Assembly (NCBI RefSeq): GCF_019175385.1
Contig: NC_083339.1
Span: 28,611,637 to 28,675,636 of the forward strand
Length of the DNA: 64,000 bases
Origin: Lycium barbarum
Lineage: Eukaryota; Streptophyta; Magnoliopsida; Solanales; Solanaceae
Reading direction: 5' to 3'
Positions 3,251 to 62,640 of the stretch are shown one piece after another. How positions within the stretch are numbered: position 1 is the first letter of the stretch; every line of letters begins with the position of its first letter. The notes beneath the pieces were generated by a model. It saw nothing but the letters and a program-made list of their open reading frames with translations, ran no database searches and had not been told where the DNA came from. The translations under genes were made by a program, and so were the position numbers.

Positions 3251-3320
<70 letters not shown>
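3251..3320. repeat. (AT)n microsatellite, 70 bp
   Basis: Uninterrupted AT dinucleotides directly precede the first of the 56-bp tandem units. Confidence 0.95.
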
Positions 3321-3324
<4 letters not shown>

Positions 3325-3532
3325 CACATTTGACAGGGAGTGACGATGTGGCCTTTGTTGTGGCGTTTATATATATAAGGCACATTTGATAGGGGGTGAC
3401 GATGTGGCCTTTGTTGTGGCGTTTATATATATAAGGCATATTTGACAGGGGGTGACAATGTGGCCTTTGTTGGGGCGTTTATATATATAAGGCATATTTG
3501 ACAGAGGGTGACGATGTGGCCTTTGTTGTATA
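3321..3532 (+). repeat. 56-bp tandem repeat, nearly 4 copies
   Basis: The string aaggcacatttga/aaggcatatttga starts at 3321, 3377, 3433 and 3489, exactly 56 bp apart. Each unit runs through a block like cagggggtgacgatgtggcc and ends in a short (TA)n, so each unit carries its own piece of the neighbouring AT tract. Copies differ at a few positions. A related stretch, GGCACATTTGACAGGGGGTG, occurs next to (TA)n in the LTR of the minus-strand element near 38280-38303. Confidence 0.93.
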
Positions 3533-19438: not shown

Positions 19439-22400
19439 TGTTACGACCCATTCCGTCGTTACGGTGACTTCAAAAATATTCGTGACAACGCCTCCCGAAG
19501 ACATGCTTGAGCCTTCCCTTGCAACTTGGGGACCATCAACTTGATCGGAAAATCATATGAGTTGCACGTAAAGAATTAGATCGGGGCCCGCGAGCCCAGC
19601 TCTTACCGCTTCAGTGTCTTTCATGTTGCCCCAGCGGTGCGGCAGTAGCGGCTGGGCAGAGAATCCCATTCGACTGCCCCAACGTCACCTTTGACGCCGA
19701 AGCAACGATGAGACCAACCTAGTAGTCACGAGCAGTGAATCCACCTATTAAAGTGACATTTCGGGAATTGGCTTCATTTCTCAAAACCTTAGAGGGTCCA
19801 GCCGTCTTTAGAGTCATTTTGGAGCAAAAAATGATACTTCCTTGGGAAAGATTATCCCCCTAACCTCTTCCATCCATTCTCCCAACATTGATTCTCATTA
19901 AGGATCTTTGTCTAGAACCACAAATGGGTAGCTCAAATCTCTTAAATTCGAAAATAATAAACCCTTGTCCTTCTTGATGTAAAATCCCTTGGAATATTTT
20001 CCTATACTCATCATCCTAACATGATTCCTAACATAATCCTTCACCTATTCCATTAAAAGACATATGGGTCTCTATTTTAGATCTTGGAAATGGGTTTCTT
20101 GAAATAAGCCTAAATTGACAATTTGACCAAACCAGTAATTTGAGTAGGGTCATAGATGTCCTAAATGAAGGTTAATTGATCAACTAGTGTTGTGATAGTG
20201 AATTTTTAGGTAGGATAAAAATTCTATATCTACCTTAGCAATTTCGAAGTCCTTGGAAAGGACCCTAATGGTGCATTCTACTCTTGGGTCTCTTGGTTGT
20301 CTCCAAGATTTTCATATGGTTAACGCGGTCGTAATTAATTGAGGCACCATTGGATATTCGTGGCACCCGCTCGGCCCTGAGGTAGGTTACGGCTTCCTTT
20401 CAGTAGACTCCGGTTAGTTTTTTGTATTGTTGTGGAGAACAAATGGAGAATGCATGTAAAGTAATTTGGAGATATGGGATGGAATCTTAGGATGGCATTG
20501 TTATGTGTGACATTTTTGTTCGGGCTTGTGGCCTGTAGACTCCTTAGGTATTGATGTGACGTTGTTGATTTTCGATGGATTTATGTGACTTGGGGGTAGC
20601 GGACGGAATCTAGTTATGCCTATCAATAAGATTATTGTAGCAAATCTAAGCGCTAGCTGGAAATATAAAATGAATCACGATAGTGAATGATACCCTAGTT
20701 AATGGCAACAAGTGACTCGAATGTAGGGTGAGATTTTTATCCTAAGTAAATAGGCTTATTAAGAAAATGGTAATACTGTATGTTAAATAATTGACCTGAT
20801 GCGTGTTAGGACTAGCCGACCGTTATATGTGTCGATTGTTTAATTGTGTTGGCTTGATGGCACATGTATTTGATAGATAGCGAATGTCGCGTGTTGTCCT
20901 GATTTGGATAGGATTGACATACCAGTTGTTGGTATGTGTACTATGACATATTATTGGTGTACCCACTGTTGGTACTTCAGTTATTTATATATATATTAGC
21001 GTACCCATTGTTGGTACTTGAGTTATTGATATATATTGACATACCCACTATTGGTATTGTGATGTGATATATTGTTGGCATACCCTGTTGAGGTACTTGT
21101 GATATTGAGCTTACTATTAATGATTGACATATGCATTGCACGCATTCTCTCATATTATCATGCATGGTGATGATCCGGTATCGTTGATTGAGCGAAACTG
21201 ATATTTGATAAACTCTTTTACTTGAGTGATTGTGAAAATGATCGATGACCGAAGATCCATTTCGAAATCGTTGTTTATATGAAACTGATACTTGACAAAC
21301 TCTTTTACTTGAGTGATTGTGAGGAGGCCGATGTCCGAGGTTCAATTTTTAAGAATCGTTGATTTACAAAACTGATATTTGACAATTCTTTTGAGTGATT
21401 ATGAGGAGGCCGATGTTCGATAGTTATTTTCGGGCATCATTGTTGCATGGTCGATTCCAATGTTATCTCGGAATCTATTATAGTGCATGGGCTCCGCGGG
21501 TCCCCCAGAGTGGTTCCGGTGAGACTCCCCTAGTGAGCAATTAGTCGGGGTCCTATCTGTCCGTTTGGCAAAGATCCGAGACGGGTGGCACTCAGACTTC
21601 TCGAGTCACACTGGGTTGTGCTGCCGAGATGTCGATATTTCCGTTGTTGGTATGATGCTACGTGTAGCTGATAGATAGCGAATGCCACTTGTTGTCCTGA
21701 TTCGGATAGGATTGACATACCCGTTGTTGGTATGTGTACTATGATACATTATTGGCGTGCCCACTATTGGTACTTGAGTTATTGATATATATATTGGCGT
21801 ACCCACTATTGGTGCTTGAGTTATTAATATATGTTGGCATACCCACTGTTGGTATTGTGATGTAATATATATTGTTGGCGTACCCTGCTGAGGTACTTGT
21901 GATTTGAGCTTACTGTTAACGATTAACATATGCATTGCACCCATTCTCTCATATTATCATGCAAGGCCGATATTCGATGATGATCTGATATCGTTAATTG
22001 AGTGAAACTGATATTGGATAGACTCTTTTACTTGATTGATTGTGAAAAAGACCCATGTCCGAAGATCCATTCCGAAATCGTTGTTTATATGAAACTGATA
22101 CTTGATAAACTCTTTTACTTGAGTGATTCTGAGGAGGCCGATGTCCGAGGTTCAATTCCGGAATTGTTTATTTATGAAACTGATATTTGACAACTCTTTT
22201 GACTGATTGTGAGGAGGCCCATGTTCGATGGTTATATTTGGGCATTGTTATTGCATGGCCGATTCGGATGTTATCCCAGAATCGATTGTAGTGCATGGGC
22301 TCCGCTGGTCCCCCAGAGTGGTGCCGGTGGGACTCCCCCTGTGAGCAATTATTCGGGGTCCCGTCTGTCTATTTGATATAGATCCGGGACGGGTGGCACT

Positions 22401-23415
22401 CAGACTTTACGAGTCACACTGGGCTGTGCTGCCGAGATGTCGATATTTCTGTTTGGAGTACATGTGTACATCTCATTTGCATAGCATGGCATGGCATCAC
22501 ATTCATACCATTATTGCATTGCATTGCATTATGACTTAATGGAGATGTCGTGATGACTATATTGTAACGATTATGTTGCTGATTCTATTGTGTTAATTGT
22601 TCCAGTATTAGATATACTTAGACTTATCATATGGGTTTTAGATGCAATACGTAGGTAATGATAAACAATTGGACTCGAATCTTGTGACTTATATTACCCA
22701 TTTGTGCCTGTTAAACAAACCTAAAACTAGTGATGTATCATGTTAAGTGAGGTTGGACATGAAGGTGTCGTAACAATGAGTTCATTCCTAAAACACGGAT
22801 GAGAGACCTGAGAATGGTAAAGATGTTGTGAATCTGTATATATGTTTAGCTGACTTATAATTTGTGATAGATTAGTTGTGACCTAAGTTAGATTGAAGTC
22901 GTGATCTATTGTTTGGGGATATGTGACTTTATTTAGTGATTATCATCATTATTCGTGAATTCTCTACCAATATGTGCTACTAACCATCGTCGGCCTATGA
23001 TACCTACTCAGTACGTGTGGTTGTACTAATACTGCACTTGCTACACCCTTTTCGGGTGTAGATTATTTCAGGTGATTGATCGAAGTGTATGCGGTGCTTG
23101 TCTGGAAGGCCTCCTCCCATTTCATTTCGGGATTGGAGGTTGAGCCTTAGTATATGATTGCACTCTGAAATTTACTTAGTTGCTTTTGTATTAGTCTAGA
23201 CCAGTTCATGGGAAATTGTATCGAGTCTGTAAAAATGTATTGTCAAATTATATAACATTCAAGTTTGTATTTACAAATGAAATTCTGTTGTTTTTCTTAA
23301 TTTCCAAATGCTTCTGAAAGGAAAGTTATGTGATTGAAGCGTTGTATAAACGAGAGGGTTCGCCTACCAAGGTGGGAAGGTAGGTGCCCGTACGAGCCCA
23401 AAATGGTTCGTGACA
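19439..23415 (+). repeat. left LTR of the LARD-like element (3977 bp, contains a tandem duplication)
   Basis: Homologous throughout to 26909-30049 but longer, because a block of about 798 bp is present twice (about 20855-21650 and 21651-22445). It also has shorter internal repeats: about 45-bp units with a cccactgttggtactt core near 20940-21100, and about 86-bp units with gaaactgata near 22004, 22091 and 22176. No gene is supported. Confidence 0.9.
20855..22445 (+). repeat. 798-bp tandem duplication within the left LTR
   Basis: The string ggattgacatac occurs at 20911 and 21709, 798 bp apart, and the sequences that follow match to about 22445. The other LTR has only one copy (about 28281-29080). 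The junction near 21640-21655 falls in a gttgttggtatg motif that recurs in the unit, which suggests unequal exchange or template switching at a short repeat. Confidence 0.85.
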
Positions 23416-26908: not shown

Positions 26909-29900
26909 TGTAACGACCCATTCCGTCGTTACGGTGACTTTCGAAATATTCGTGACACCGGCTCCCGAAGACATGCTTCAGCCTTCTCTTGCAACTTAGG
27001 GAGTATCAACTTGATCGTAAAATCATATGAGTTGCGCATAAAGAATTAGATTGCGCATAAAATCATATCAACTTCAGCGTCTTTCAAGTCGCCCCAGTAG
27101 TGCCGCAGTAGCAGCTACGCAGAGAATCCCATTCGACTGCCCTAGCGTCACCTTTGATGCCGAAGCAGTGACGAGACTGCCCCAGCGGTCACGAGTAGTG
27201 AATCGACCTATTTAAGTGACATTTCGGAAATTGGCTTCATTTCTCAAAACCCTAAAGGGTCCAGCCGTCTTTAAAGTCATTGTGGAGCAAAAAATGATAC
27301 TTCCTTGGGAAAGATTATCCCCCTAACCTCTTCCATCCATTCTCCTAACATTGATTCTCATTAAGGATCTTTGTCTAGAACCACAAATGGGTAGCTCAAA
27401 TCTCTTAAATTTCAAAATAATAAACCCTTGTCCTTGTTGATGTAAAAGCCCTTGGAATATTTTCCTATGCTCATCATCCTAACATGATTCCCAAGCTAAT
27501 CCATCACCTATTCCATTAAAAGACATATGGGTCTCTATTTTAGATCTTGGAAATGGGTTTCTTGAAATAAGACTAAGTTGACAATTTGACCAAACTAGTA
27601 ATTTAATTAGGGTCATGGATGTCCTAACTGAAGGTTGATTGATCAACTAGCGTTATGATAGAGAATTTTTAGGTAGGATAAAAATTCCATATCTACCTTA
27701 GCAATTTCGAAGTCCTTGGAAAGGACCCTAATGGTGCATTCAACTCTTGGTTCTCTTGGTTGTCTCCAATATTTTCATATGGTTTACGCGGTGGTGATTA
27801 ATTAAGGCATCATTGGATGTTCATGGCACCCGCTCGGCCTCGAGGTAGGTTACGACTTTCTTTCGGTAGACTCCGATTAGTTTTCCGTATTGTTGTGTAG
27901 AAGAAACGGAGAATGCATGTATAGGAATTTGGAGATATGGGATGGAATCTTAGGATGGTATTGTTATGTGTGACATGTTTGTTAGGGCTCGTGGCCTGTA
28001 GACTCCTTAGGTATTGATGTGACCTTGTTGATTATCGGTGGATTTATGTGACTTGGGAGTAGCGAACGAAATCTAGTTATGCCTATCGATGATATTACTG
28101 TAGCGAATCTAAGCGCTAGCTGATGCCCTAATTAAATGGTAACGAGTGACTAGAATGTAGGGTGAGATTCTTATCCTAAATAAATTGTCTTATTAGGAAA
28201 ATGGTAATACCGTATGTTAAATGATTGACTTGATGTGTGTTGGGACTAGCCGCCCGTTATATGTGTTGATTGTTTAATTGTGTTGGCTTGATGCTACGTG
28301 TAGCTGATAGATAGCGAATGCCACTTGTTGTCCTTATTCGGATAGGATTGACATACCCGTTGTTGGTATGTGTACTATGATACATTATTTGCGTGCCCAC
28401 TATTGGTACTTGAGTTATTGATATATATATTGGCGTACCCACTGTTGGTGCTTGAGTTATTAATATATGTTGGCATACCCACTGTTGGTATTGTGATGTA
28501 ATATATATTGTTGGCGTACCCTGCTGATGTACTTGTGATTTGAGCTTACTGTTAATAATTGACATATGCATTGCACCCATTCTCTCATATTATCATGCAA
28601 GGCCGATATTCGATGATGATCCGATATCGTTGATTGAGTGAAACTGATATTGGATAGACTCTTTTACTTGATTGATTGTGAAAAAGACCCATGTCCGAAT
28701 ATCCATTCCGAAATCGTTGTTTATATGAAACTGATACTTGATAAAATCTTTTACTTGAGTGATTATGAGGAGGCCGATGTCCGAGGTTCAATTCCGGAAT
28801 TGTTTATTTATGAAACTGATATTTGACAACTCTTTTGACTGATTGTGAGGAGGCCCATGTTCGATGGTTATATTTGGGCATTGTTATTGCATGGCCGATT
28901 CCGATGTTATCCCGGAATCGATTGTAGTGCATGGGCTCCGCTGGTCCCCCAGAGTGGTGTCGGTGGGACTCCCCCTGTGAGCAATTATTCGGGGTCCCGT
29001 CTGTCTATTTGGTATAGATCCGGGACGGGTGACACTCAGACTTTACGAGTCACACTGGGCTCTGCTGCCGAGATGTCGATATTTCCGTCTGGAGTACATG
29101 TGTACATCTCATTTCCATAGCATGGCATGGCATCACATTCATACCATTATTGCATTGCATTATGACTTAATGGAGATGTCGTGATGACTATATTGTAATG
29201 ATTGTGTTACTGATTCTATTGTGTTAATTGTTCCAGTATTAGATATACTTAGACTTATCATATGGGGTTTAGATGCAATACGTAGGTAATGATAAACAAT
29301 TGGACTCGAATCTTGTGACTTATATTACCCATTTGTGCCTATTAAACAAACCTAAAACTAGTAATGTATCATGTTAAGTGAGGTTGGACATGAAGGTGTC
29401 GTAACAATGAGTTCATTCCTAAAACACGGATGAGAGACCTGAGAATCGTAAAGATGTTGTGAATCTGTATATATGTTTAGCCGACTTATAATTTGTGATA
29501 GATTAGTTGTGACCTAAGTTAGATTGAAGTCGTGATCTATTGTTTGGGGATATGTGACTTTATTTAGTGATTATCATCATTATTCGTGAATTCTCTACCA
29601 ATATGTGCTACTAACCATCGTCGGCCTATGATACCTACTCAGTACGTGTGGTTGTACTAATACTACACTTGCTACACCCTTTTGGGGTGTAGATTATTTC
29701 AGGTGATTGATTGAAGTATATGCGGAAGTAATGTGGTGCTTATCTGGAAGGCCTCCTCCCATTTCATTTCGGGATTGGAGGTTGAGTATGATTGCACTTT
29801 GAAATTTACTTAGTTGCTCTTGTATTAGTCTAGACTAGGTCATGGGAAATTGTATCGAGTCTGTAAAACTGTATTGTCAAATTATGTAACATTCAAGTTT

Positions 29901-34606: not shown

Positions 34607-37090
34607 GTGATATCTTAAGTTGCATCCTTATTTGAAAATGCATGGAGTGTATGTATGAGAATCTACCCATGGGATGTGTTGTCTGTTCTTGATGTCTGAT
34701 GGTGATGAATTATGGCATAATGAGAGGTTCGATCATTGGTCATGTAGCCTGTTTGTATACTAAGTGATGTGGTAAAATCATGATGTGTGAAGGTTCCTTG
34801 TTCTGATAATGAGTATGATTAAAGGGAGGGTGTTAAGGATTAATTTATTAAGTTAAAAGGTAAGTATGTTATAGTTAATCCATGAGAGTATCCCTTGTTC
34901 GATTCAGTGGTTTGTCTGATTTTGTTTTACCTAAGAAGCTGAAGATAATTAACTTTAAAAAGGAGACTCTTGGATCAATAATGTCCAGAGGAGTTAATGA
35001 AGTTTGAGACCTTAATTTGGCTATGATCCTTAGACTAGCTTACCTGCAGAAGTCAGCAGGGTCATTTAATGACACATAATTTAGTTGATTGATAAGGAAA
35101 GGGGATCAGGGAATGTATGTGGATGGACTTAAGTCACCTGGAACTTGAGGAGGTCTTTTAAAGATACCTTAAGGCAGGATTGGGAAGAACCAAGATCAAA
35201 CTTGGTTCATAATGTCTTTCCCTCAAATAAAAGGTGCCATGGCATACCTCAAGGATCTGTGGGGCATGTATTGCATTATGAATATCCCCTGATCTCTATT
35301 CCTTATCAATGAACCAAGGAAAAAGGGTATGAGTCAATTAGGAGGATGTTAGAGTGAAGAGTGTGGACTAACAATAGATCATTAGTTGTTAATAATGGAT
35401 CAGGTGAATTAATTGTTTTACAGGTTTGATCTTCTTTAATATTAAAATGAGACAAGGTAAAGGGAAGGAAAGATGGAATCATCTAGGTCAGTTTGGATTT
35501 TATGTATACATTAGTTGTTAATAAGAAGAATACTGTTTGGGAAGCAAGTTAGTAAGTTATCTAAATCAATCTTTGAGAAGGTCATTGGAACTTGAGTAGA
35601 AACCTAACTATCTGCCATATGGCCTATTTGTGAACATGAGTATCATGTTGCCTTTGCACGTGCACATTGCATTTTAGGACCTATTTTAACATTGATTGAG
35701 ACTTTGTTTTGGAATCCAGTTATGCCAAAAAGTCTTAAAGGTTGATTAGATTAAGTATTTAGAAGATCATAGTTAACCCAAGTCTATTTGATTACCTGTT
35801 TATATGAGATGTCTCTGAATCCTGTTTGAAGACCTTGAGTGCATTAAAATGAAGTTGACACTGGTCCTAGTCCATATGTGTGATTGTCCCATGCCTAAAA
35901 TCTGTTAAAAAAAAGTGTAAGTCAAGCTGCTAACTTGAAGTTATACTTAAATCACAAAATTCCTGCATAGTTTTATCTAGAGTAAACTGATTCAAGGTTT
36001 AGAGTGAAAGTATCTAGCATGTTACCTCTTGAACTATTTGAGTCTTGGTCTGAGCTTAAATACTTTGTCCATGTGTTTAATTGCCACTACTTGACTGATT
36101 GCTTCATAGGAACCTCTGTGACTTGGCTAGATAGAGTTTATAGTATGACATGACCTGCTGAATGTTCAGACTAGCTTGTGATGATTCTGTGAAATTAAAA
36201 TGACTTAATGAACCTACTACGGAAAAAATTGACTAGGGATAAAACTCAATTCAAAAGAATATGGGAATCACTCTGTGTCACTAAGGTGTGTTTAGAATGG
36301 CATACATCTTGTCTTGCTAGCATTAGTAGTTGTTGGTCTTTTCTGAATATCACTGTGTCTTGCAACAGTTAGTTAGACTCAGAGAGGCCTGCTTTTTTAT
36401 ACTCAATTGTGCCATGCTTGTTTAGATCCCCACTGGTTTTATTACACCACGCTATGGTCCTGCACATGTCCCTTTGTGAATTAAATGGATGACCTAATTT
36501 AGAGTGTTTACAAATCTGCTCAGTTGTGTGTGAATTCTCTATATGCATCTTCTGCTGATTGCCATTGTGTGAATTTCCTTGTGCTCTCCCATGAGCATTG
36601 AGACTTGCAGTTAACTTCTGTCTAAACCATGTTTACATACTTATAGTCTATCCTTATCCATGCTATGTCTAAGTGTTCTTAGTTGGCCTTCTGTCTAAAC
36701 CATGTCTGCTTGCTTCTATATATATATATATATACATTGTAGTTGTTCTATTCATCCATGACCTTGTATTTTGGTTGTTGCTTCCATTTATACTATGCCT
36801 ACTATCTGTGTTTGGCTGTTGGTTACACTGTGTCTGCATATGTCATCTATGCTATCCTTTATATAAGTGTGAAGTCCTATGTTATCATTCCTTCTCTTTT
36901 GGCTGTGTTGGTTGGGAATTAAGTTAGCTATTTGGGTCTTAAGCCTTCCCCTGGTGTCCTGCCATGCCGGAGGTTCATGAAACCTTTTGGATCTTGTGCG
37001 GCATTAGGAACATGCATGGTGGTGACTCTCCCTCTTACTACCCAAATCCCTACCAATAAAAATCCTAGTAGCGCAGATATGAATGTTTAT
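34607..37090. other. about 2.5 kb unassigned sequence, no gene
   Basis: No protein domain or clear LTR boundary is visible. It has a TATA-like cctttatataag near 36857-36868 and an (AT)n at 36717-36734. The style (promoter-like box followed by a ccttcccctggtgtcc block near 36944) resembles an LTR or UTR of another retrotransposon, but I see no second copy in the window. The open stretch at 36673-36927 is read-through of the AT tract. Confidence 0.4.
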
Positions 37091-48757: not shown

Positions 48758-49116
48758 AATCATCAAGATATAAAATAGCATAACTTATCATAAAGGGTTA
48801 TCGAGAAATGTAGTGAGATCGTTGTGAAGTCTTCATCCTTAATTAGAAATTTGGGGTTATAATTCTTAGAATGAATATTCTTTTAGGAAGCGCTTTACCG
48901 TCTTTCATAGACTTACCGAGCACAAATTCAAATTAGTACGGTCAGTAGCAGATTTGAATACTATATGACCAAACCAAAAAAAATTGAAAGGGTGATCCAA
49001 TGGGTAACACACTTCTGGGAGTAAAAAATTTTTTTTTTCTTAGAATGAAAATGATTATAATACGCTGATTTAGAACTTACGGAATTCATGAAGTTCATCG
49101 TGTAACTACTTGGGAA
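48758..49116. other. no gene or repeat recognised
   Basis: About 360 bp of AT-rich sequence between the copia LTR and the Helitron-like 5' end. Nothing recognisable apart from a short T-run at 49030-49039. Confidence 0.5.
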
Positions 49117-49692
49117 TCTATATATAATATAAAGTTAGGCATAGATAAGGTGATATGACACCTCTCTATGACCAGCATTGTTATTTATCTTTTTTCACAT
49201 TTTTTGGCATTTTTTCTTCAATTTTATACATTATTTATATACTAAGTAAATCAATTAAAAAAATGCCTCATAAAGTAAATACAGCAATATAACCCATGTA
49301 ACAGTAATAAATGATGGTCTTTATGATAAATCATTACAATAAAGCCCATGTAACAGTTATGGCTGAATCAGCCCAGAACACTAATGGATGTCCATTCCTT
49401 TTTTTGGACTTCCGGTCTTCCTCTTTTCCCTTTCCAAGCAAATCTCTTTTACTCTTCTGCCTCCCACTCGGAAAAATACTTCTTTTCGCTATTAATATTT
49501 TTTAATTTATTCCATGTTTTTGTTAGTTGTAAAACTGAAGTTTGTTTTATCGTTATTTTTTGTTTTATCATATTTTAAATGTAGAAAGTGTCTAAATATA
49601 GTATTAAAACTTCATTCCAACAACTCTTCATTTGCTAAAACTTTTACCCCTTTCGTTTTCTCGATACCTCTCTTATTAAGCCAAGAGACATA

Positions 49693-49812
49693 CAACAACA
49701 ACAACAACCCAGTGAAATCCCACAACGTGGGGTCTGGGGAGGGTAGAGTGTACGCAGACCTTACTCCTACCAAGGTAGGATGGCTGTTTCCGAGAGACCC
49801 TCGACTCAATAA
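49693..49812 (-). repeat. SINE 3' region (TS/SolS-like) with (GTT)n tail
   Basis: The plus strand shows (CAA)n, then cccagtgaaatcccacaacg and ggggtctggggagggtagag, a sequence very widespread in solanaceous genomes. The tRNA-related SINE head is missing and replaced by 5S. Confidence 0.85.
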
Positions 49813-49844
49813 AAACATAAAAAGAGGTCAGATACGCAAAAGGA

Positions 49845-49963
49845 GGGATGCAACACGAGGACTTCTCAGGGGGTCACCCATCCTAGTACTACTCTCGCCC
49901 AAGCACGCTTAACTTCGGAGTTCTGATGGGATCCGGTGCGTTAGTGCTGGTATGATCGCATCC
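49845..49963 (-). ncRNA. 5S rRNA-derived head of the retroposon (not a normal 5S gene)
   Basis: About 119 nt match plant 5S rRNA from memory, from GGATGCGATCATACCAGC to cctcgtgttgcatccct. The internal control region looks complete, with AAGTTAAGCGTGCTTGGGC (box A) and aggatgggtgacc (box C) present. The changes seen are in the 3' third (ccccctgagaa where 5S has ctcctgggaa). It could still serve as an internal pol III promoter for the retroposon (inference). It is a single copy with TSD, not part of a 5S array. Confidence 0.88.
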
Positions 49964-50742
49964 TAAGCCAAGAGACATATTTATCCTTTTTCTCTTTTTT
50001 TAAATTTTCCTCATTTTTTTCCCATTTATGTCTATTAAAATTCCACTTCCATAAACTCATTTTTTATCTTTATAACCTATATCTTTAATAATCTCCATAA
50101 CTCCTATTCCTTTCATGTTCATAACCTCCAAACTTAAATTTGTAAGTTTATGATAATTTATGTTGTTCCTCCATATATACCTATATCTATCTATATTGCA
50201 AGGCAAGCCTTTTTTAATCAGATGGCGGTGTATCCTAATTGGCATTTGATGCACTCATAAGCAAAAGAGTTAATAAGTACATATTAGCCTTCTTGGCTTT
50301 TTGTTACTCATGTTGAAGAGATTCTTCATCAAAGAGAATTAGGCTATGCTTATATCATTTTGTTGCACCAGTAAAAGCTATCCAGGGAGTACTATCAAAT
50401 TTGTTTGCTTACTTTATGACTTATACTTTGTATTTTGACATTTTCTATAATGCAAAAAGTAAATATTGTTTATTATACTTTCCTTATATTACTACTATAT
50501 TTGCTTCATGTTGGCTTTTCCTTTGTGATTGTGAAGATCATTATGTTGGATTCTTACTATTAAAGTGTATAATAGGAAGAGGTTAGTAAGTACTTTTTTT
50601 TCTTGAAGATATATGCTTGGTTAGTAATAAGCATACTTAGGGGATCATGAACAATGAGACGGAGATTACGGAATAGAAAATAAAGAAAAGAAAAATAATG
50701 AAATGAAATTTTGAAAATTATGATTAACGGAAATGTAATATA

Positions 50743-50860
50743 GAATTACAGATGCCGCAAATCCGCATCTTCTGCTGCAACTTTAAAAGTGAAGAAATAC
50801 AGAATTACAGATGCCGCAAGTCCGCAGCTTCTGCTGCAGCTTTAAAAGTGAAGAAAAAGA
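50743..50860 (+). repeat. 59-bp tandem duplication
   Basis: gaattacagatgccgcaa starts at 50743 and 50802. The two units differ at a few positions. Confidence 0.9.
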
Positions 50861-51349: not shown

Positions 51350-51383
51350 ATATATATACACACACGCACACACACACACACAC
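51350..51383. repeat. (TA)n/(CA)n microsatellite
   Basis: Alternating TA then CA repeats, directly before the first copy of the 972-bp direct repeat. Confidence 0.85.
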
Positions 51384-52304
51384 TATGTTCAAAACACGAT
51401 TAATATAACATTGTAGTTTATGTTCCATATCTAAAACTTTATTATATTAGTGTTTCCTACGAATACAAAGTTGGCAAAAATTTATTAATACTTTTTAAAA
51501 GAGAAGACTTATTTAAAAGGAAACTATTTTCCTCTCTTTGAGATAAAACAATAGCAATATTTAAGCATCAGTTGATGCTTTCAATTTTAATTTGTTTAAT
51601 TTAAAGGTGTAAAATAATTATTATTTTTTATCAAATTTTGATTTGGATAATTATAATTCAAATTATTAAATTAATTTTACATGTTTAAAACGAAACAAAG
51701 TAGAAATTGATTTTCTATTTAAAGGAAGAAATACTATTTTTTAATTTTTGGTAAATATTCTCGGTTTAGCTCATTTTACTTGTCATGTTGTCTTTTGCAT
51801 GGTTTTTAAGGAAACGTCAATTAGAATTATAATTTAACTAATTTACCTTATTCATTATTTGATCTCCATTTGATATTTTTGGTTTTACGACATTAATCTC
51901 TTTTCACATTTATTAGAGTAAGAATAAAAATTAAAAATTAATTAAATTCTATCTTATTTTAAAATATAAATATTTTAAGTATATTTGTTTTAGTAAACAT
52001 AAAAAATAAATAACATGGCAGAATAGCAAATAAAACGGTTCAATATCTAGATTAGATCTCAGGCTAATTTAAAAAAAAAAAAATTGTATGGTTTGGCTAC
52101 TTAACCTTTTAAACAAAAGCAATAATATGGGGGTCCATGTTTTTTGCGGTACAATAATTTCATTTGCTCCCACTAATGGGTTGATAAGCATGTGACAATG
52201 AATCCATCATTATTGACTTAATGGGATACTTTGGAAATTACATGAATATTGTTTGATATAGGGTGCACTTTTTTTTTTGACATTATTAGTTTGCACTGTT
52301 TTTA

Positions 52305-52355
<51 letters not shown>

Positions 52356-53325
52356 TATGTTCAAAGCACGATTAATATAACATTGTAGTTTGTGCTCCGT
52401 ATCCAAAACTTCATTATATTAGCGTTTGCTACGAATATAAAGTCTGCAAAAATTTATTAATACTTTTTAAAAGAGAAGACTTGTTTAAAAGGAAACTATT
52501 TTCCTCTCTTTGAGATAAAACAATAGCAATATTTAAGCATCAGTTGATACTTTCAATTTTAATTCGATTAATTTAAAGGTGTAAAATACTTATTATTTTT
52601 TATCAAATTTTGATTTCGATAATTCTAATTCAAATTATTAAATTAATTTTATTTGATTTTCTATTTAAACGAAGAAGTACTATTTATTTATTTTTTAGTA
52701 AATATTTTCGGTTTAACTCATTTTACTTGTCATGTTGTCTTTTGCATGGTTTTGTAAGGAAATGTCAATTAGAATTAGAATTTGACTAATTTACCTTATT
52801 CATTATTTAATCTCTATTTGATATTATTTTTTATTTTACGATATTAATCTCTTTTCAAATTTATTAGAGTAAGAATAAAAATGAAAAAGTAATTAAATTC
52901 TATCTTATTTTAAAATATAAGTATTTTAAGTATATTTATTTTAGTAAACATAAAAAATAAATGACATAGCGGAATAGCAAATACAACAGTTCAATATCTA
53001 GATTAGATCTCAGGCTAATATAAAAAAGTAAGAAAATTGTATGGTTTGACTACTTAACCTTTTGAAGAAAAACAATAATATAGGCTCCATGTTATTTGTT
53101 GTACAATAATTTCATTTGCTCCCACTAATGGGTTGATACGCATGTGGTAATGAATCCGTCATTATTAACTTAATGGGATACTTTGGAAATTATATGAATA
53201 TTGTTTGATTTTTTAATATGAGATGCACTTTTTTTTTTTTTTGACATTGTTTGTTTTTTTTAATATGGGGTCCACTTTTTTTCCGTGAGTTTGGGGATGG
53301 TGAGTTCCACTTTTTTTTTATATAT
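51382..53325 (+). repeat. 972-bp direct repeat, two tandem copies
   Basis: actatgttcaaa begins at 51382 and 52354. The following about 900 bp match with scattered substitutions and a few indels. The second copy lacks a stretch near 52650. An (AT)n tract (about 52308-52353) separates the copies. AT-rich, no gene. Confidence 0.88.
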
Positions 53326-54650: not shown

Positions 54651-56667
54651 TCATATTGATGGACGAGTTAGGCAAGACTCCAACCTGTTCATTCCAAAAA
54701 GGATAATTACACAGAGGAGGACATAAACCTTAGCATCACTTAGATGATGTAGATTGAAGGAATCCAATCTAATAGCTATCAGCCTATAGTACATGTACAA
54801 AAGATTGAGGGACTCCACCCTATACAAAGTTGAATTTTTTGGAATGAAAATTACTACTACATACAGATATGCAGCTACAAGCAATAAATCGAAATGATCA
54901 GGTGATACCATCATTGATGCAAAAGTGGTTCTTCTTTGGTCATACCATCTTGAAACTCTAACCCGATTAGGAAGGGAAACAGCTTCATTGAAGATAGTAA
55001 GAAATTTGTTATGTACTCCTAGATTGGCAAAGTGATCAGCAATGTCATTGCCCTCTCTAAAAGTATGTACAAAAAGAAAATTTCTGGAATTTGAGATCTC
55101 CCATATATGAACTAGAATATGCCAGATTTGCGAGTGAGGTTGACAAGACTTGTTGAGCATATTCACAATAAGCATGGAATCAGATACCACAATAAAATTC
55201 TAAAATCCCAAGCTATAGCATATGCTGCAACCCTGCAAAACTGCTTTAGCTTCAGCAACATTATTGGTACAGAGGCCATAATAGTCTGAGAAAGACTTAA
55301 CCACAGGACCCCTATGACTTCTAATAATACCTCCTCCGCCAGTTTCTTCAGGATTGCCTTTCCTACAACCATCCACATTTAGCTTAAACATCCAAGATCA
55401 GGTTTTTTTACACCTGATAGCCTTAGAGTGAATAAGAGGTTTTAGGCCCTCAATTGTTCTACATTTGTCTATCCACAAATGTGGAAGCAAAAGTTTTGGG
55501 AATTGGACATTTAAGATAAGATTCATAAATTTAATCACTAGCTGGATAATATGCCAATTGGACATTTTGAAGTTCTCAAACCTGGCAGAACATATGTTCT
55601 TCCATATTTCCCAACAAATGATAATAGAAAGACATTGAATCATGGTAGAATGAACATTATTACTAGTTTTAGCCATCCACCGATTCATAAGTTTAAGTCT
55701 TATGTTTTGACTTCTATAAGAGATATTACTATACTTACAAAAATAAGTCCATACCTTTTCAGAAATCAAGCTCTTATTGAAAAGATGATCAATAGTTTCC
55801 TCCTTATAGATGGTACAACATGAGCATCTAGAGGGTATAACCACTCCAATAAATTTAAGAATATCATCTGTTGGTATTTTGCTTTGGAGTAGTCTAAATA
55901 TGAAAAAGGAAATCCTGAAGAGAATCCTTTTGTGCCAAATCTTCTAACTAGAAAGACTAGTGCACTGTTTCTGTCTCACCAATTGCTAGGCTGATTTACA
56001 AGTGAAATTCCCTTAGTCTTCAAGAAGCCAATAGGGTTAATCTGCTAACCTGCCTTATTTACATCAATATCCAACTTTTTTATAGTGTGAACCATATCTA
56101 GTGGAAGAACTTGCGGAAACTTGTCAAGATTCCACAAGCCACCATTCATGAATTCACTAACTTTTGTGATCTTTGAAGCTCTTCCCACCTGAAGTATAGA
56201 AGCAATTGCTCCCAATCCTGACCAGTTATCCCACCAAAGGAATTCATCACCTTTTCCAATCTTCCAGAAAGTATGTGGTTCAGCTTCACTCTTAATGTTC
56301 ATGAGTCTTCTCCATACATGTGATTGGCCATGACCCCATATTTTGTCAACTAGATGTGATCTTTTGCAGTACTTTGCTAGAAGAAAATCCTTAAGCAAAG
56401 TATTTTGAGTCCTTAAATTCCACCAAAGCGTTGTAGAGAAAGTACTACAAATGTCTTTTAGAGATATGAACCCAGCTCCTTTTTCATTGACAGGAAAACA
56501 TAGGTCATTCCAAGAATTCCAATGCCTCTTGTTCTTGTTTTGATCTCTACCCCAAAAGAAATTGGCCACAATCTTATCTATTTGATCCAGGTTAGTTTTA
56601 GTAGGTTGAATCACAGCCAAGAGGTGAAGTGGCATAGCATGGAGGATAGATTTTATAAGGACTGCTT
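54651..56667 (-). pseudogene. LINE ORF2, C-terminal half: zf-RVT region and RNase H
   Basis: From the interruption: KAVLIKSILHAMPLHLLAVI, IVANFFWGRD, HVWRRLMNIKSEAEPHTFW and FLWWDNWSG (56680-56045). After a frame change comes a zf-RVT-like CSCCTIYKEETIDHLF (near 55820). RNase H follows, with MFKLNVDGCRKGNPEETGGG (from 55391), NNVAEAKAVLQG and VVSDSMLIVNMLNK (about 55200-55150), and REGNDIADHFANLGVH near 55050. All four acidic positions (D, E, D, D) remain. Stops at about 56045, 55398, 55200 and downstream break the frame. Confidence 0.85.
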
Positions 56668-59597
56668 TGTCACGACCCAATTCGCGAGTCGTGGTGGCAC
56701 CTACACTATCCCTCCGAGTAGGCGAACCACATTACTAATAACAAGTTAAATAAGCAGAAAAATTAAATAAGAATAAGTTATCAAGTCTTAAATGCTTATC
56801 ATAATTAGAAATGTCACGACAACCCCAAAATCTGGTCAAAGGGTACAAGAGCGCTAACATAGTACGGAATAGAAGTCTGAAAATACCCGAAGGCTACATA
56901 TTGTCTGTAGAATACAAGAACCGAAATAAATAGAGGAGGTCCTTAAGGGGCCACGGATGACCAAGTAGCTCACCCTGAATGACTGAAGATGTCACCCTCG
57001 CGTATCAGCCACGGGGTGTAGAACTGGAACCTGGATCGTACTCTGCACTCAACAAAAGTGCAGCAAGAGTAGTATCGGTACAACACTTGTACCGGTAAGC
57101 ATCATAGGCCGACAATGATTAGATAACGCATGAAGAAGTTGAAACCAACAAGTAGCATATAGAGCAAACAGGTATGGTCACGTATCATATACAAATAATG
57201 TATAAAGGAATCATGAAATCAACCAAGACAGATATAATTCACCAAATGATCAGTCAAATATAAGAGTGGATGAATGCAATGCAATGCAATACAATAATCA
57301 CCTCTCTCACTCCACTCTCGTACACACATGCTAAGGGCAGTGCCTCAAAGCCATGACCCATGGGGGACCCGCGAAGTCCATGTACCACTCGTGCTCTCCG
57401 GCAGAAACCTCGGAGGCTTTTAATCACTCTCAATCTCCGGCAAAGACCTCGGAGTCTCTCAATCAGTCACCTCACCAATCATCACAACAATAATATGGAA
57501 AGCATGCCATGCATGATATCAGTCTCAACAATATCACCAATATAAATCAACAAGTACAAGTCATATTACTGTCCACTGTTCAATTATCAATATTACCATT
57601 CTTTTTCATGCGATGAGTGAACTAGTATGTGACAGAGATACAAACAAGTGATTATCACAGAAATAACACATTTGGCGACAAGCACACATAACAGCTGACA
57701 AACCAACCTAATTAGAATTCACCTCCACTTCATGCCCGAAGGCCTATCATGCTATCCCCGTCACTTTCTACAACTACATGCGATTCTCTAATCAGAGTCT
57801 AACTAAAGTAGACCGTAACCTACCTCAATGCCGAACGAGTGCCACGAACAATCAAACTAATGCCTTCCCTTTGCGTAGAGCCTCTGAACGATTAAAATCT
57901 ATAAGATATGCGATCTACGTTAGAATACGAATCTACGAGCACCCATATTGCTATATTTATATTCGAAACCCAGAAACGCACCCCAAAAAGTGGCATTGGG
58001 CCCACAAGGGCAAGATTGTAATTTTATTGAAAACTGGCATACAATAGCCCAAACTTATGATTCTCAACAATCATCGAAATCCGATCACGAATCGACGTTC
58101 AATTCCACATTTTACTTGAAAACTCGTTTCCATGGAAAACCCACCAATTTCTATATACCATTATTTTATTGAATTTTTTTGAAATATCAAGAATATGAAA
58201 TATAATGGACAATAATAAATAAAATAAAAAATCTGATCCAAACACACAATATAGATGAAAGCATTCACAGATTAAGACAAAAACATAATTTAATATATTT
58301 GAACAAGGGCTTCCATTATGTACATAGTACCAAAACTTTTGCATACTTAATGAAGAAAAAGATTGTTAAATAGACCTCAAGCAATTGCCAAAAACATCTT
58401 CGTCAACTGAGGAAAAGCTCAACAAGCAGTAGCTCAACATTATAAAGTCATTAAAATCGTCCAGTCATTAAAATAGTGACTCTAGACCATGATGCATTCA
58501 TGAGACAGATCAAAGGAAACATGCACCAAAAAAAAAAAAGAATTCTAACGTACATATATATCATCCAAGAAATCCAACATCAATACTTAGTTATATTTCA
58601 CATGATATTAAACAATTTAAATATATAGTATGAACTAAACTCAAGTAAAAGAAATGGATCCATAATCATTACTAATACCATCTCTGACATGAACACTATA
58701 ATCTTAATCACTAAACACATAGAGGATTAATTATATTACACCAAGAATCAATAATTGGAAGAAATCCTTACTTGCACAGTTGAGTTCCTAGAATTCTTTT
58801 TGGAATGTTTTTGCTCTTCCTCTTGATATTTCTGGTGTTGTTCAAGTTAAAGTAATTTGTGTCCACTTCCAATAATGAATCGAATGGAGCAAGATCCGTA
58901 ATAAGATCTTGGACATGGGTGGTGTCTTGATAATTTAGAAAAGAAGAAGAATTGGTGTTTGTTGGCAGTTAAAGGAGCTGGAGGTTATCATTATCATTGC
59001 CTTGTTGAAAAGGAAACATGAAATTATCCCTCTGTACTTCCACTAATTAATATGTTTTCAACTTAATAATAAGTACATGCACTAACTAATTGTGACTTTC
59101 CTTTATCTTCATCATTAATACCTACCTACCTAACAAATTTATTACTCCCTCCGTAAGTCCAAATAGTAGATTGGCCCACTTCTTTTACCTTTTATTTAAT
59201 AACCAACCAATGCATTTTAGTCCACCAATCCATTAGCATATTAGCCAAATAAAATAAAATAAAATAAATACTCTCTCCTCATGCCTTATATATATATGTG
59301 TAAATAATATTCCCCTTAATTTCTACAATTTACTTATCCACTTAACCACCTGTAGAAATATAGTCCTTCCGCCAAATATTTTAATTTCCAACTTAGATCT
59401 TATATGTGTGAAACTCATATTCCTATAAATAAACTATTCACACATATTAAATAAAAAGATATTTAAAAAAAAATATCCGCCAATTAAATCGCCATGCCAC
59501 CAAATTCCCGCAAATTAAGAATACCCTTTAAACTACGAAAAAGGTATTTTAGCGAAAACTAGTTCACAGGTTCTAAACGACCAAACGGGTCGTTACA
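56668..59597 (-). repeat. solo LTR (2930 bp) of a gypsy family, inserted in LINE ORF2
   Basis: Plus-strand ends are TGTCACGACCCAATTCGCG and AACGGGTCGTTACA. The perfect 5-bp TSD tgctt lies at 56663-56667 and 59598-59602. Landmarks such as ccctttgcgtagagcctctg (57867-57886) match those in the LTRs of the 37.5-46.9 kb element, so it is a related family in the same (minus) orientation. No internal region is present: the element was lost by LTR-LTR recombination. An actccctccg motif near 59150 may be a MITE fragment inside it. Reading frames within it are not genes. Confidence 0.9.
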
Positions 59598-61124
59598 TGC
59601 TTTGCCTCAATAAGAAAGGAATTTGGATTGCCAACCCTGAAGTCTATTAGAGATTTTTGTAACTAGACTATTGAAGTAGATCACTCTTTTCCTCCCAAAA
59701 TAAATAGGGCATCCCAAATAAGTCATAGGAAAAGGGCAATGTGAAAAAACAGTGATTCTCTTGATCTCATTGATTCTGGGATCATCATTCTTGAAAGACA
59801 CATAGAAGCCAGACTTGTGCTTATTCACAAGTTGTCCAAAGACCCTTTCATATTGATTGAGTTTGGACATAAGTAACTCCAAAGAAGTTGGATCACAGGA
59901 AGAATATTGAATTGTGTCATCTGCATAGCACAAATGGTTGATTTTTGGCCCATTGCCCATAACTCTAAGTGAAATAGGGAATGAAATTAGTATTCATCAA
60001 AATGTTCATAAGCTTGGATAGAAGTTCTGCCCCAATGACAAATAAAGATGGGGATAGTGGATCTCCTTGCTTGATACCTCTGCTGGACTTGAAAAAAACA
60101 TGTCTAACCCCATTAATATTAACAGAATACCACACATTGGTCATTAATCTCCAAACCATACCAATCCAAAATTCTGAGAATCCAAGTTGTCTAATGACTT
60201 TATCAAGGAATTCCCATGAGACTCTGTCATAAGCCTTAGCCATGTCTAGTTTAAGCACAACATTCCCATGTTCAGTGGTTTTATTGATGTTATGGACCAT
60301 GTCTTGAGTCAGCATAATATTTTATGTAATTGATCTACCTTTTAAGAAACATGTTTGGTTAGGGGTAATCAACTTGTGCATCAATGGACTCAATCTTTGA
60401 TTCACCTGGGCTTTGAGATGATCTTGCAAGAGAAATTGCTAAGACTGATTGGTCTCAGTTCAGTGAAAGTTTGAGGATTAGCAACTTTGGGGATCATAAC
60501 AAGACATGTATGTGTGAATGCCCTTGGAATTGGGGTACCTGCAAAAAAATCAAGAATCATTAGTAATAGATCATTTTTAATAGTTTCCCAACAGGCTTGA
60601 TAGAATTTCCCAGAAACTCCATCAGGCCATCAGGACCTGGTGAACTCTAGGAACTCATAGAAAAAACAATGTCCTTTACTTCTTGTAAAGAAGGAGGATC
60701 AGATAACATTTTATTATCACAGTGAGTAATAAGTTTAGGAAGACAATTCACAATGGAAAAATCAATATCATCATTTTCCTTAGTAAATTGTTTTTGAAAA
60801 GGTATCCTTCAATAGCTATAAGGTCATCTCCTTCAATCCAATCTCCGCCATCATTCTTAATTTTGTCCAAGCTATAAGGTCATCTTCTTTCTTCCATTTA
60901 TTCATTAATGACTTGAAAAATTTGGAGTTCACTTCACCTTCAACAAACCATTTTATCCCAGATTTTTGCTTCCAAAAGGATTTTTCTTTTTTATAGGCCC
61001 TGATAAGTATGGCATTGGCATGATTCAGAGATGCTCTATTGATTTTAGAAGTATCAGCTATCATAACATTTTCAAGATCAACCTTGTTCTCCAACTCTTT
61101 TATAGTATCAAAAATGGTGCCCAC
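59598..61124 (-). pseudogene. LINE ORF2, N-terminal part: reverse transcriptase
   Basis: From 61124: a linker with SFWKQKSGIKWFVEGEVNSK (about 60985-60925). Broken frames with SSGPDG-like and PRAFTHTCLVMIPKVANPQT-like motifs follow around 60650-60480. RT proper is in two open stretches: GNVVLKLDMAKAYDRVSWEF (about 60265-60205) and SSRGIKQGDPLSPSLFVIGA (about 60095-60035), then HLCYADDTIQYSS with the catalytic YADD (about 59935-59895) and MTYLGCPIYFGRKR. The solo LTR cuts in right after LQGWQSKFLSY. Catalytic residues are intact, but stops and frameshifts prevent expression. Confidence 0.87.
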
Positions 61125-61986: not shown

Positions 61987-62241
61987 CCCTTCATTTCATA
62001 ATAAGTGATTTTTTAAGCTTATGCACACCTCTTAAGAAATTGTTCACTCCTAGATAAGTAGGAGTTTTTTTATTAACTTACCCCTAATCAATTTTTATTA
62101 CTTTCTAGAAAAAGAAAAGGTAGTTTGTGAATCTTGACTATTTAAATAAGGATAATTTTGGAAGAATCTGCCCAAAGTCTTATTGAAATCCTAAAGCATC
62201 ACTTATTTTGGAATAAATTAAAATGCCTAAAACACCACTTA
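61987..62241. mobile_element. MITE truncated by a Helitron insertion
   Basis: The left part cccttcatttcataataagtg has an inverted counterpart, cacttattttggaataaatt, near 62198-62217. The right terminal part is cut at ccactta|tctatata, where the Helitron 5' end begins between A and T. The end of the MITE would resume beyond the Helitron's 3' end, outside the window. Confidence 0.6.
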
Positions 62242-62640
62242 TCTATATATAATATAAAGCTAGGCATAAACAAGGTGATGTGGCACTTCTCTATGGCCAC
62301 CATTCCTATTTATCTTTTTTCTCATATTTTTGGATTTTTTATACATAAATTATTAACTAAATGGCTTAAAAAAAGCCTCACATGATATATGTTGAACTAA
62401 AGCCCACGTATCTGTTTATCAATAATGTCATTTAATCATATCAGTTACATGTGTTCCTTTGTTTTCCAGAATTAAATAATATCATTTAATCACTAACCGT
62501 TTTGGTTTTGGTAAGTAAATATCCGAAAAAATAAGAACTAAGCATTTTGCTAATTCCAGCATCTTCAGCAACTTCCTTCTTCTTGGTGCAAATTTCAAGA
62601 AGAATTTAAGCTTTGCGGCATATAAGGCATGGGAAATGGG

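What the first reader, a model, noticed from the sequence alone, without database searches (positions are those of the whole stretch)
49677..49979. 5S rRNA-headed SINE with a perfect 16-bp target site duplication
A full-length 5S rRNA sequence and a TS-type SINE tail, on the same strand and in the right order, form one 271-bp insert between identical 16-bp duplications. The 5' end of the insert is exactly the 5S +1 base and the 3' end is (GTT)n, so the chimera itself retrotransposed. Known relatives are fish SINE3 (5S-derived) and the plant Cassandra TRIMs (5S inside an LTR). I do not recall a plant SINE with a 5S head and a tRNA-SINE tail. If it recurs it is a SINE family with a swapped pol III promoter; if unique, it is a one-off template switch.
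Basis: partly seen in the sequence, partly recalled or inferred. Interest (0 to 1): 0.87.

Follow-up and report, generated by a model that had tools for sequence, protein, structure and literature searches.

The report
Plant 5S rRNA fused to retroelement tail
A complete copy of the ribosomal 5S RNA, fused to what looks like the tail of a short jumping element, sits between matching duplications in what appears to be plant DNA; similar fusions are known in animals, and whether this one is a lone accident or one of many copies could not be tested here.

Summary
The sequence observation holds. On the minus strand a complete 5S rRNA (Rfam RF00001, model 1-120, 114.6 bits) starts at the first base of a 271-bp insert, continues into 152 nt ending in (GTT)nG, and is bracketed by a perfect 16-bp direct repeat. 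5S and tail most likely entered in one integration. It is not a 5S array fragment or a Cassandra LTR. Two nested insertions are unlikely but not excluded: a 5-nt repeat lies inside the link (chance about 0.11). The (GTT)n end and a duplication starting with TA fit the RTE-LINE signature reported for legumes; its upstream T-stretch is absent. The name 'TS-type tail' is recalled; no sequence here confirmed it. The decisive test, other copies with other duplications, could not be run: the genome search was unanswered in 18 of 18 tries. I favour a one-off template switch by an RTE reverse transcriptase onto a 5S transcript, because T4, T5 and T5 runs between head and tail should hinder RNA polymerase III. 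A 5S-headed plant SINE family stays open (0.3); AnnoSINE, by its own description, excludes candidates nearly identical to such RNAs. Moth HaSE3 is the nearest precedent.

The parts
49677..49692 (.). left target site duplication (3' TSD in the element's orientation), TAAGCCAAGAGACATA
   Evidence: the repeat finder: 2 copies, 100%, spacing 287
49964..49979 (.). right target site duplication (5' TSD in the element's orientation); in sense orientation it begins TA
49845..49963 (-). complete 5S rRNA head, 119 nt, starting exactly at +1; C-box AGGATGGGTG intact at 5S positions 80-89
   Evidence: RF00001 1-120, 114.6 bits, E 1.7e-24; positions; C-box motif from PMC10853983 passages
49808..49844 (-). 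37-nt link between 5S and the 115-nt tail; begins TCCTTTT (possible 5S terminator) and holds T4, T5, T5 runs (insert positions 123-126, 141-145, 149-153); contains TATGT, the first 5 nt of the sense TSD
   Evidence: residues KRR next to 5S in 3 of 7 protein hits (P0001-P0003) are weak evidence that its first bases are 5S 3' flank
49693..49807 (-). 115-nt retroposon-like tail from GAGTCGAGGG to (GTT)nG; RTE/TS-SINE type by recall only
   Evidence: TTG-repeat ending of TS SINE and its partner LINE described in PMC3747384 (passages)

Best explanation
A single retroposition product made by a plant RTE-clade LINE machinery. Reverse transcription was primed at a nicked target and began on the (GTT)n tail of a SINE or RTE RNA; after about 115-150 nt the enzyme switched to a full-length, probably untrimmed, 5S transcript, copied it to its 5' end, and the joint cDNA was integrated, duplicating 16 bp. 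Shown: full-length 5S, tail, order, orientation, one 16-bp TSD pair around both. Inferred: RTE as the enzyme, template switching as the joining step, and that it is a dead copy because T-runs lie between the 5S promoter and the tail.
For: One 16-bp TSD pair around both parts and no second direct repeat of 12 nt or more in 49600-50050. It shows features listed for LINE template-switch chimeras in PMC2104539 (full-length 5' RNA, same orientation, flanking repeats). (GTT)n ending and TSD beginning TA match the signature that PMC13295347 reports for legume RTE elements (sequence). T4/T5/T5 runs between head and tail would hinder a pol III master copy. No second copy in the window.
Against: The T-stretch about 10 nt upstream of the TSD is absent: there is A5 instead. 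The tail's identity is recalled, not aligned, so 5' truncation of the tail partner cannot be shown. In LINE-1 chimeras the 5S part is typically truncated and antisense (PMC13174262, passages), unlike here. TATGT occurs both in the link and right after the tail, so a second, 5-bp TSD cannot be excluded. Full-length sense 5S chimeras seem rare, so meeting one in 64 kb mildly favours a multi-copy family (inference, weakened by the scan's selection of oddities).
Confidence: 0.5

Rival explanations
1. A member of a 5S-headed plant SINE family: an RTE-dependent SINE whose tRNA-derived pol III promoter was swapped for the 5S internal promoter, multiplying as 5S-derived SINE families do in animals.
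For: Complete 5S with intact C-box; exact +1 start; TSD; RTE-like ending. Animal precedent HaSE3 (PMC3272025, passages). Such a family could be overlooked: AnnoSINE excludes candidates nearly identical to Rfam RNAs at E 1e-15 by default (PMC8825457, passages), and this head scores E 1.7e-24 (different search size); that it would be dropped is inference.
Against: No other copy in 64 kb. T4, T5, T5 runs downstream of the promoter. [quoted passage not shown] Genome not searchable.
Confidence: 0.3
2. A read-through transcript: an RTE or SINE tail had inserted just downstream of a 5S gene, and the 5S transcript running through the weak terminator into that tail was retroposed (one step short of founding a family).
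For: The link starts TCCTTTT directly after 5S; 3 of 7 antisense-ORF hits (P0001-P0003, unnamed sources) carry the same KRR residues next to 5S, and P0001 aligns further, IKRGQIR-KRRD to VKRGERETKRRD.
Against: Three shared residues plus a gapped stretch is weak, and T/C-rich terminators produce them easily; the other 4 of 7 hits read KKR or KKG there. T5 runs further on would also have to be read through.
Confidence: 0.11
3. Two sequential insertions: a 5S retrocopy with the 16-bp TSD, then a short tail fragment inserted 5 bp into its 3' TSD, duplicating TATGT.
For: TATGT stands at insert positions 145-149 and again directly after the tail. 5S retropseudogenes are abundant in mammals (PMC5322556, passages).
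Against: A 5-mer prefix turns up in about 0.105 of 10,000 shuffles of the 45-nt link region; a 5-bp TSD is short beside the 16 bp of the outer pair; the second insertion would have had to hit within 5 bp of the first one's end (inference).
Confidence: 0.05
4. 5S array fragment, Cassandra TRIM remnant, or an assembly join.
For: 5S-like DNA does occur in arrays and in Cassandra LTRs (PMC10853983, PMC10886601, passages).
Against: No second 5S in the window; no LTR pair of 12 nt or more in 49600-50050 and a 16-bp TSD, where the 5S-bearing TRIM Ajax makes 5 bp (for Cassandra the value is recalled); a false join would not be expected to make a perfect TSD (inference).
Confidence: 0.03

Closest known systems
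HaSE3, 5S-derived SINE of Helicoverpa (PMC3272025, passages)
   Same: 5S head; shares body and tail with a tRNA-derived SINE whose tail matches an RTE LINE; [quoted passage not shown]
   Different: Repeated in moths; here one copy in plant-like DNA, family status untested
Ped-1 of springhare (table row in PMC3747384)
   Same: 5S head with BovB listed as partner LINE (RTE clade, recalled)
   Different: Mammal, family; no sequence compared here
TS SINE of tobacco with partner LINE RTE-1_Stu (PMC3747384, passages) and the Angio-domain SINEs (Seibt 2020: reference entries and one review sentence only)
   Same: 3' end of about 100 bases shared with an RTE LINE and ending in TTG repeats; this tail looks alike by recall
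   Different: tRNA-related head; no alignment to TS could be made here
LINE template-switch chimeras: U6 or 5S with LINE-1 (PMC13174262, passages); WEIRD/MGL/Mg-SINE in Magnaporthe (PMC2104539, passages)
   Same: Bipartite insert, a small RNA upstream of a LINE or SINE 3' part, often flanked by TSDs
   Different: 5S in LINE-1 chimeras (27 insertions described; 10.5% of a catalogue of 253) is typically truncated and antisense; here it is complete and sense
Cassandra TRIM (PMC10853983, passages)
   Same: Plant retroelement carrying the 5S internal promoter
   Different: LTR element; shared 5S core of about 70 bp in mid-LTR; here no LTR and a complete 5S at the very end

Membership tests
5S-derived SINE (SINE3-type) | 5' head homologous to 5S rRNA with internal promoter | tested here: met
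   RF00001 1-120; C-box intact; A-box and IE limits recalled, substitutions inferred at 24, 93, 98 lie outside them
5S-derived SINE (SINE3-type) | 3' tail shared with a partner LINE | tested here: inconclusive
   (GTT)n ending fits plant RTE; no LINE sequence available to align
5S-derived SINE (SINE3-type) | flanking TSDs | tested here: met
   16 of 16
5S-derived SINE (SINE3-type) | multiple copies with different TSDs | tested here: inconclusive
   one copy in 64 kb; genome search unanswered 18 of 18 times; the other collections gave only chance matches or none
LINE template-switch chimera (features as in PMC2104539) | 5' part a full-length copy of a cellular RNA | tested here: met
LINE template-switch chimera (features as in PMC2104539) | 3' part a 5'-truncated LINE or SINE, directly joined, same orientation | tested here: inconclusive
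   same orientation by recall of the tail's direction and its (GTT)n end; truncation and exact join not testable without the partner sequence; 37-nt link unassigned
LINE template-switch chimera (features as in PMC2104539) | short direct repeats flank the chimera | tested here: met
Plant RTE-type insertion (as described for legumes in PMC13295347) | TSD starts with T, then A; LINE ends (GTT)n | tested here: met
   TATGTC... and (GTT)nG; the legume SINEs described there end in Tn instead
Plant RTE-type insertion (as described for legumes in PMC13295347) | T-stretch about 10 nt upstream of the TSD | tested here: not met
   AGAGAAAAAGGATAAA precedes the TSD
Cassandra TRIM | two LTRs carrying 5S | tested here: not met
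   only one direct repeat family, the TSD, in 49600-50050; only one 5S in the window
Angio-SINE superfamily | 37-bp Angio-domain near the 3' end | not testable with these tools
   domain sequence not in any text seen; paper not held; resemblance is recalled

The most novel reading that the evidence does not exclude
This is one copy of a 5S-headed SINE family in a flowering plant, in which an RTE-dependent SINE exchanged its tRNA promoter for the 5S internal promoter, missed because plant SINE finders look for tRNA boxes (recalled) or exclude near-perfect 5S matches (AnnoSINE).
Probability: 0.3. Interest if true: 0.78.

Novelty: new variant of a known kind. Interest (0 to 1): 0.5.

Why it matters
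In the texts seen, plant SINEs are described as tRNA-derived, and 5S-derived SINEs are reported from animals and from one fungus (abstract start in listings). A 5S-headed chimera in plant DNA would show that the step from which 5S-headed SINEs could arise also happens in plants. It makes a plain question testable: do plant RTE LINEs switch templates onto pol III RNAs, and did any such fusion become a family? It also points to a possible blind spot in SINE annotation.

Tried and rejected
Array fragment rejected: a single 5S in 64 kb. Cassandra rejected: no LTR pair. Two sequential insertions: one search shows no second repeat of 12 nt or more, but it could not see shorter ones; a later check found TATGT in the link and directly after the tail (chance about 0.105), so this stays a minor rival.

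Functional RNA fold of the tail or whole insert: not supported, z 0.44 for the insert, 0.50 and -0.24 for two tail pieces. A hairpin in the tail looked as if it carried paired changes against a tail consensus that I recall, but with no relative to align I do not count it.

Searches in collections that are not of plants: tail 17-mer, 2 stretches in viral contigs and 8 in genome contigs, each matching only 16-17 bases of the insert there; junction gap pattern, 3 IMG/VR contigs matching 13 bases (one of the 3 read); 5S core, 23-nt tail and 26-nt junction patterns, 0 each in viral contigs; plasmids and phages, no match. The 17-mer has the recalled canonical first base and differs there from the window; one search used letters that the window holds, in viral contigs only. 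Protein search with the ORF crossing the junction: 7 proteins of 11 candidates at E up to 10. All 7 share the antisense-5S part. Of the 3 compared one by one, P0001 aligns over the link, and P0003 and P0006 run on into the tail's frame with gaps; I take the last two as chance, untested. The sense frame gave 1 candidate and no hit. Literature search by tail letters: 0 papers.

Pfam hits (LINE and LTR domains, Transposase_32 'putative plant transposon protein') fit a plant.

Full report
Observation. The window carries, on the minus strand, a 271-bp insert (49693-49963) between two identical 16-bp repeats, TAAGCCAAGAGACATA, at 49677-49692 and 49964-49979. The first 119 nt of the insert in sense orientation are a complete 5S rRNA (RF00001, model 1-120 of 120, 114.6 bits against a gathering score of 38, E 1.7e-24), the only Rfam match in 64 kb at gathering threshold. 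The remaining 152 nt run to (GTT)nG. The bases beside the two repeats differ on both sides.

Chance. In 20 first-order random windows there was no non-simple 16-mer pair 100-1000 bp apart. The real window has 46 runs of such pairs: 37 in two large duplications (20.9-22.4 kb and 51.4-53.2 kb), 7 in or beside tandem arrays, this one, and one other isolated pair at 35380/35509. At one fixed offset the match probability with local composition is about 7e-9. The repeat abuts both element ends to the base.

What the TSD shows. One 16-bp pair brackets 5S and tail together, and no second direct repeat of 12 nt or more exists in 49600-50050. A 5-nt repeat, TATGT, lies in the link and directly after the tail; such a 5-mer arises in about 10.5% of shuffled links. 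A single integration is therefore much the simplest reading, and a second insertion with a 5-bp TSD a minor rival. A single integration does not separate a template switch during that event from the copying of an RNA that was already chimeric; PMC2104539 (passages) describes flanked products of switching with a full-length cellular RNA upstream.

The head. Seven protein hits of unnamed origin are antisense readings of 5S genes (P0005 is joined to an unrelated membrane-protein-like start). Where they cover the place they differ from this copy in ways that, with the plant 5S consensus I recall, imply three substitutions here, at 5S positions 24 (seen against 3 hits that reach it), 93 (against 7 of 7) and 98 (5 of 7 read P, P0001 reads L as here, P0002 reads T). 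The C-box AGGATGGGTG (motif from PMC10853983, passages) is intact at 80-89. So the promoter looks usable, though A-box and IE limits are recalled.

The link and tail. Directly after 5S comes TCCTTTT and then two T5 runs, at insert positions 123-126, 141-145 and 149-153. They lie between promoter and tail and would be expected to hinder pol III, an argument against this copy being a source gene. The 115 nt from GAGTCGAGGG to the end resemble, by recall, the tail shared by TS SINE and RTE LINEs. PMC3747384 (passages) states that about 100 bases of the TS 3' end are nearly identical to a potato RTE-clade LINE and that both end in TTG repeats. No such sequence could be fetched, so the identity of the tail stays unproven.

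Which enzyme. PMC13295347 (passages) reports for legumes that RTE LINEs end in (GTT)n and their related SINEs in Tn, that TSDs begin with T, typically followed by A, and that a T-stretch lies about 10 nt upstream. Here the (GTT)n ending and the TA start fit; the T-stretch does not, A5 standing in its place. TA occurs at 8.3% of positions in the window, so the fit is modest evidence.

Recurrence. The window holds no second copy of head, tail or junction. The genome search was unanswered in 18 of 18 tries. Viral, bacterial and archaeal, plasmid and phage collections gave only chance matches or none, as expected of collections that are not of plants; that says nothing about recurrence. Protein searches with frames crossing the junction found relatives of the 5S part; two alignments run on into the tail's frame with gaps, which I take as chance.

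Literature. In the listings and passages seen I found no plant 5S-headed SINE; I read no paper whole. [quoted passage not shown] AnnoSINE excludes candidates nearly identical to Rfam RNAs (PMC8825457, passages), so an element like this one might be dropped (inference). The library holds open-licence papers only: Wenke 2011, Seibt 2020, Seibt 2016, Ohshima 2012 and Nishiyama and Ohshima 2018 are not held, and Repbase was not available. Closest relatives in print: HaSE3 of moths and Ped-1 of springhare. LINE-1 chimeras include 5S, but typically truncated and antisense (PMC13174262, passages).

Weighing. The T-runs, the lack of a second copy in the window and the known habit of LINE enzymes to switch templates favour a single event; the complete sense 5S, the animal precedents and the filter in annotation keep a family open. 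I give 0.50 to a one-off switch, 0.30 to a family, 0.11 to a read-through transcript, 0.05 to two sequential insertions and 0.03 to array, Cassandra or assembly readings.

Noticed in passing
51382-53209: Two direct copies of an AT-rich stretch of about 880 bp, 89% identical, with a pure AT repeat between them: tandem duplication or LTR-like pair.
   Followed up: partly
20501-22869 and 27964-29500: Duplicated composite repeat: about 1.2 kb at 97% identity and 1.1 kb at 86%, containing 42-bp and 87-bp tandem arrays; the outer limits are those of the slice compared.
   Followed up: partly
54651-59993 (minus): Broken LINE-like reading frames with zf-RVT, RVT_3 and a sub-threshold RVT_1 match; L1-like by recall, not shown to be the RTE partner.
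   Followed up: partly
35380-35524: The only other isolated 16-bp direct repeat pair found (CATTAGTTGTTAATAA, spacing 129): possibly the TSD of another small insertion.
   Followed up: no
50737-50856: 59-bp unit present twice in tandem at 93%.
   Followed up: no
49116-49215 and 62241-62340: A dispersed 100-bp repeat at 87% identity, one copy upstream of the insert and one near the window's end.
   Followed up: no
3312-3529: 56-bp tandem repeat, 3.9 copies, next to an AT microsatellite.
   Followed up: no
protein P0005: A 134-aa predicted protein on a 1186-base contig joins a membrane-protein-like start to an antisense 5S reading; perhaps a chimeric contig.
   Followed up: no
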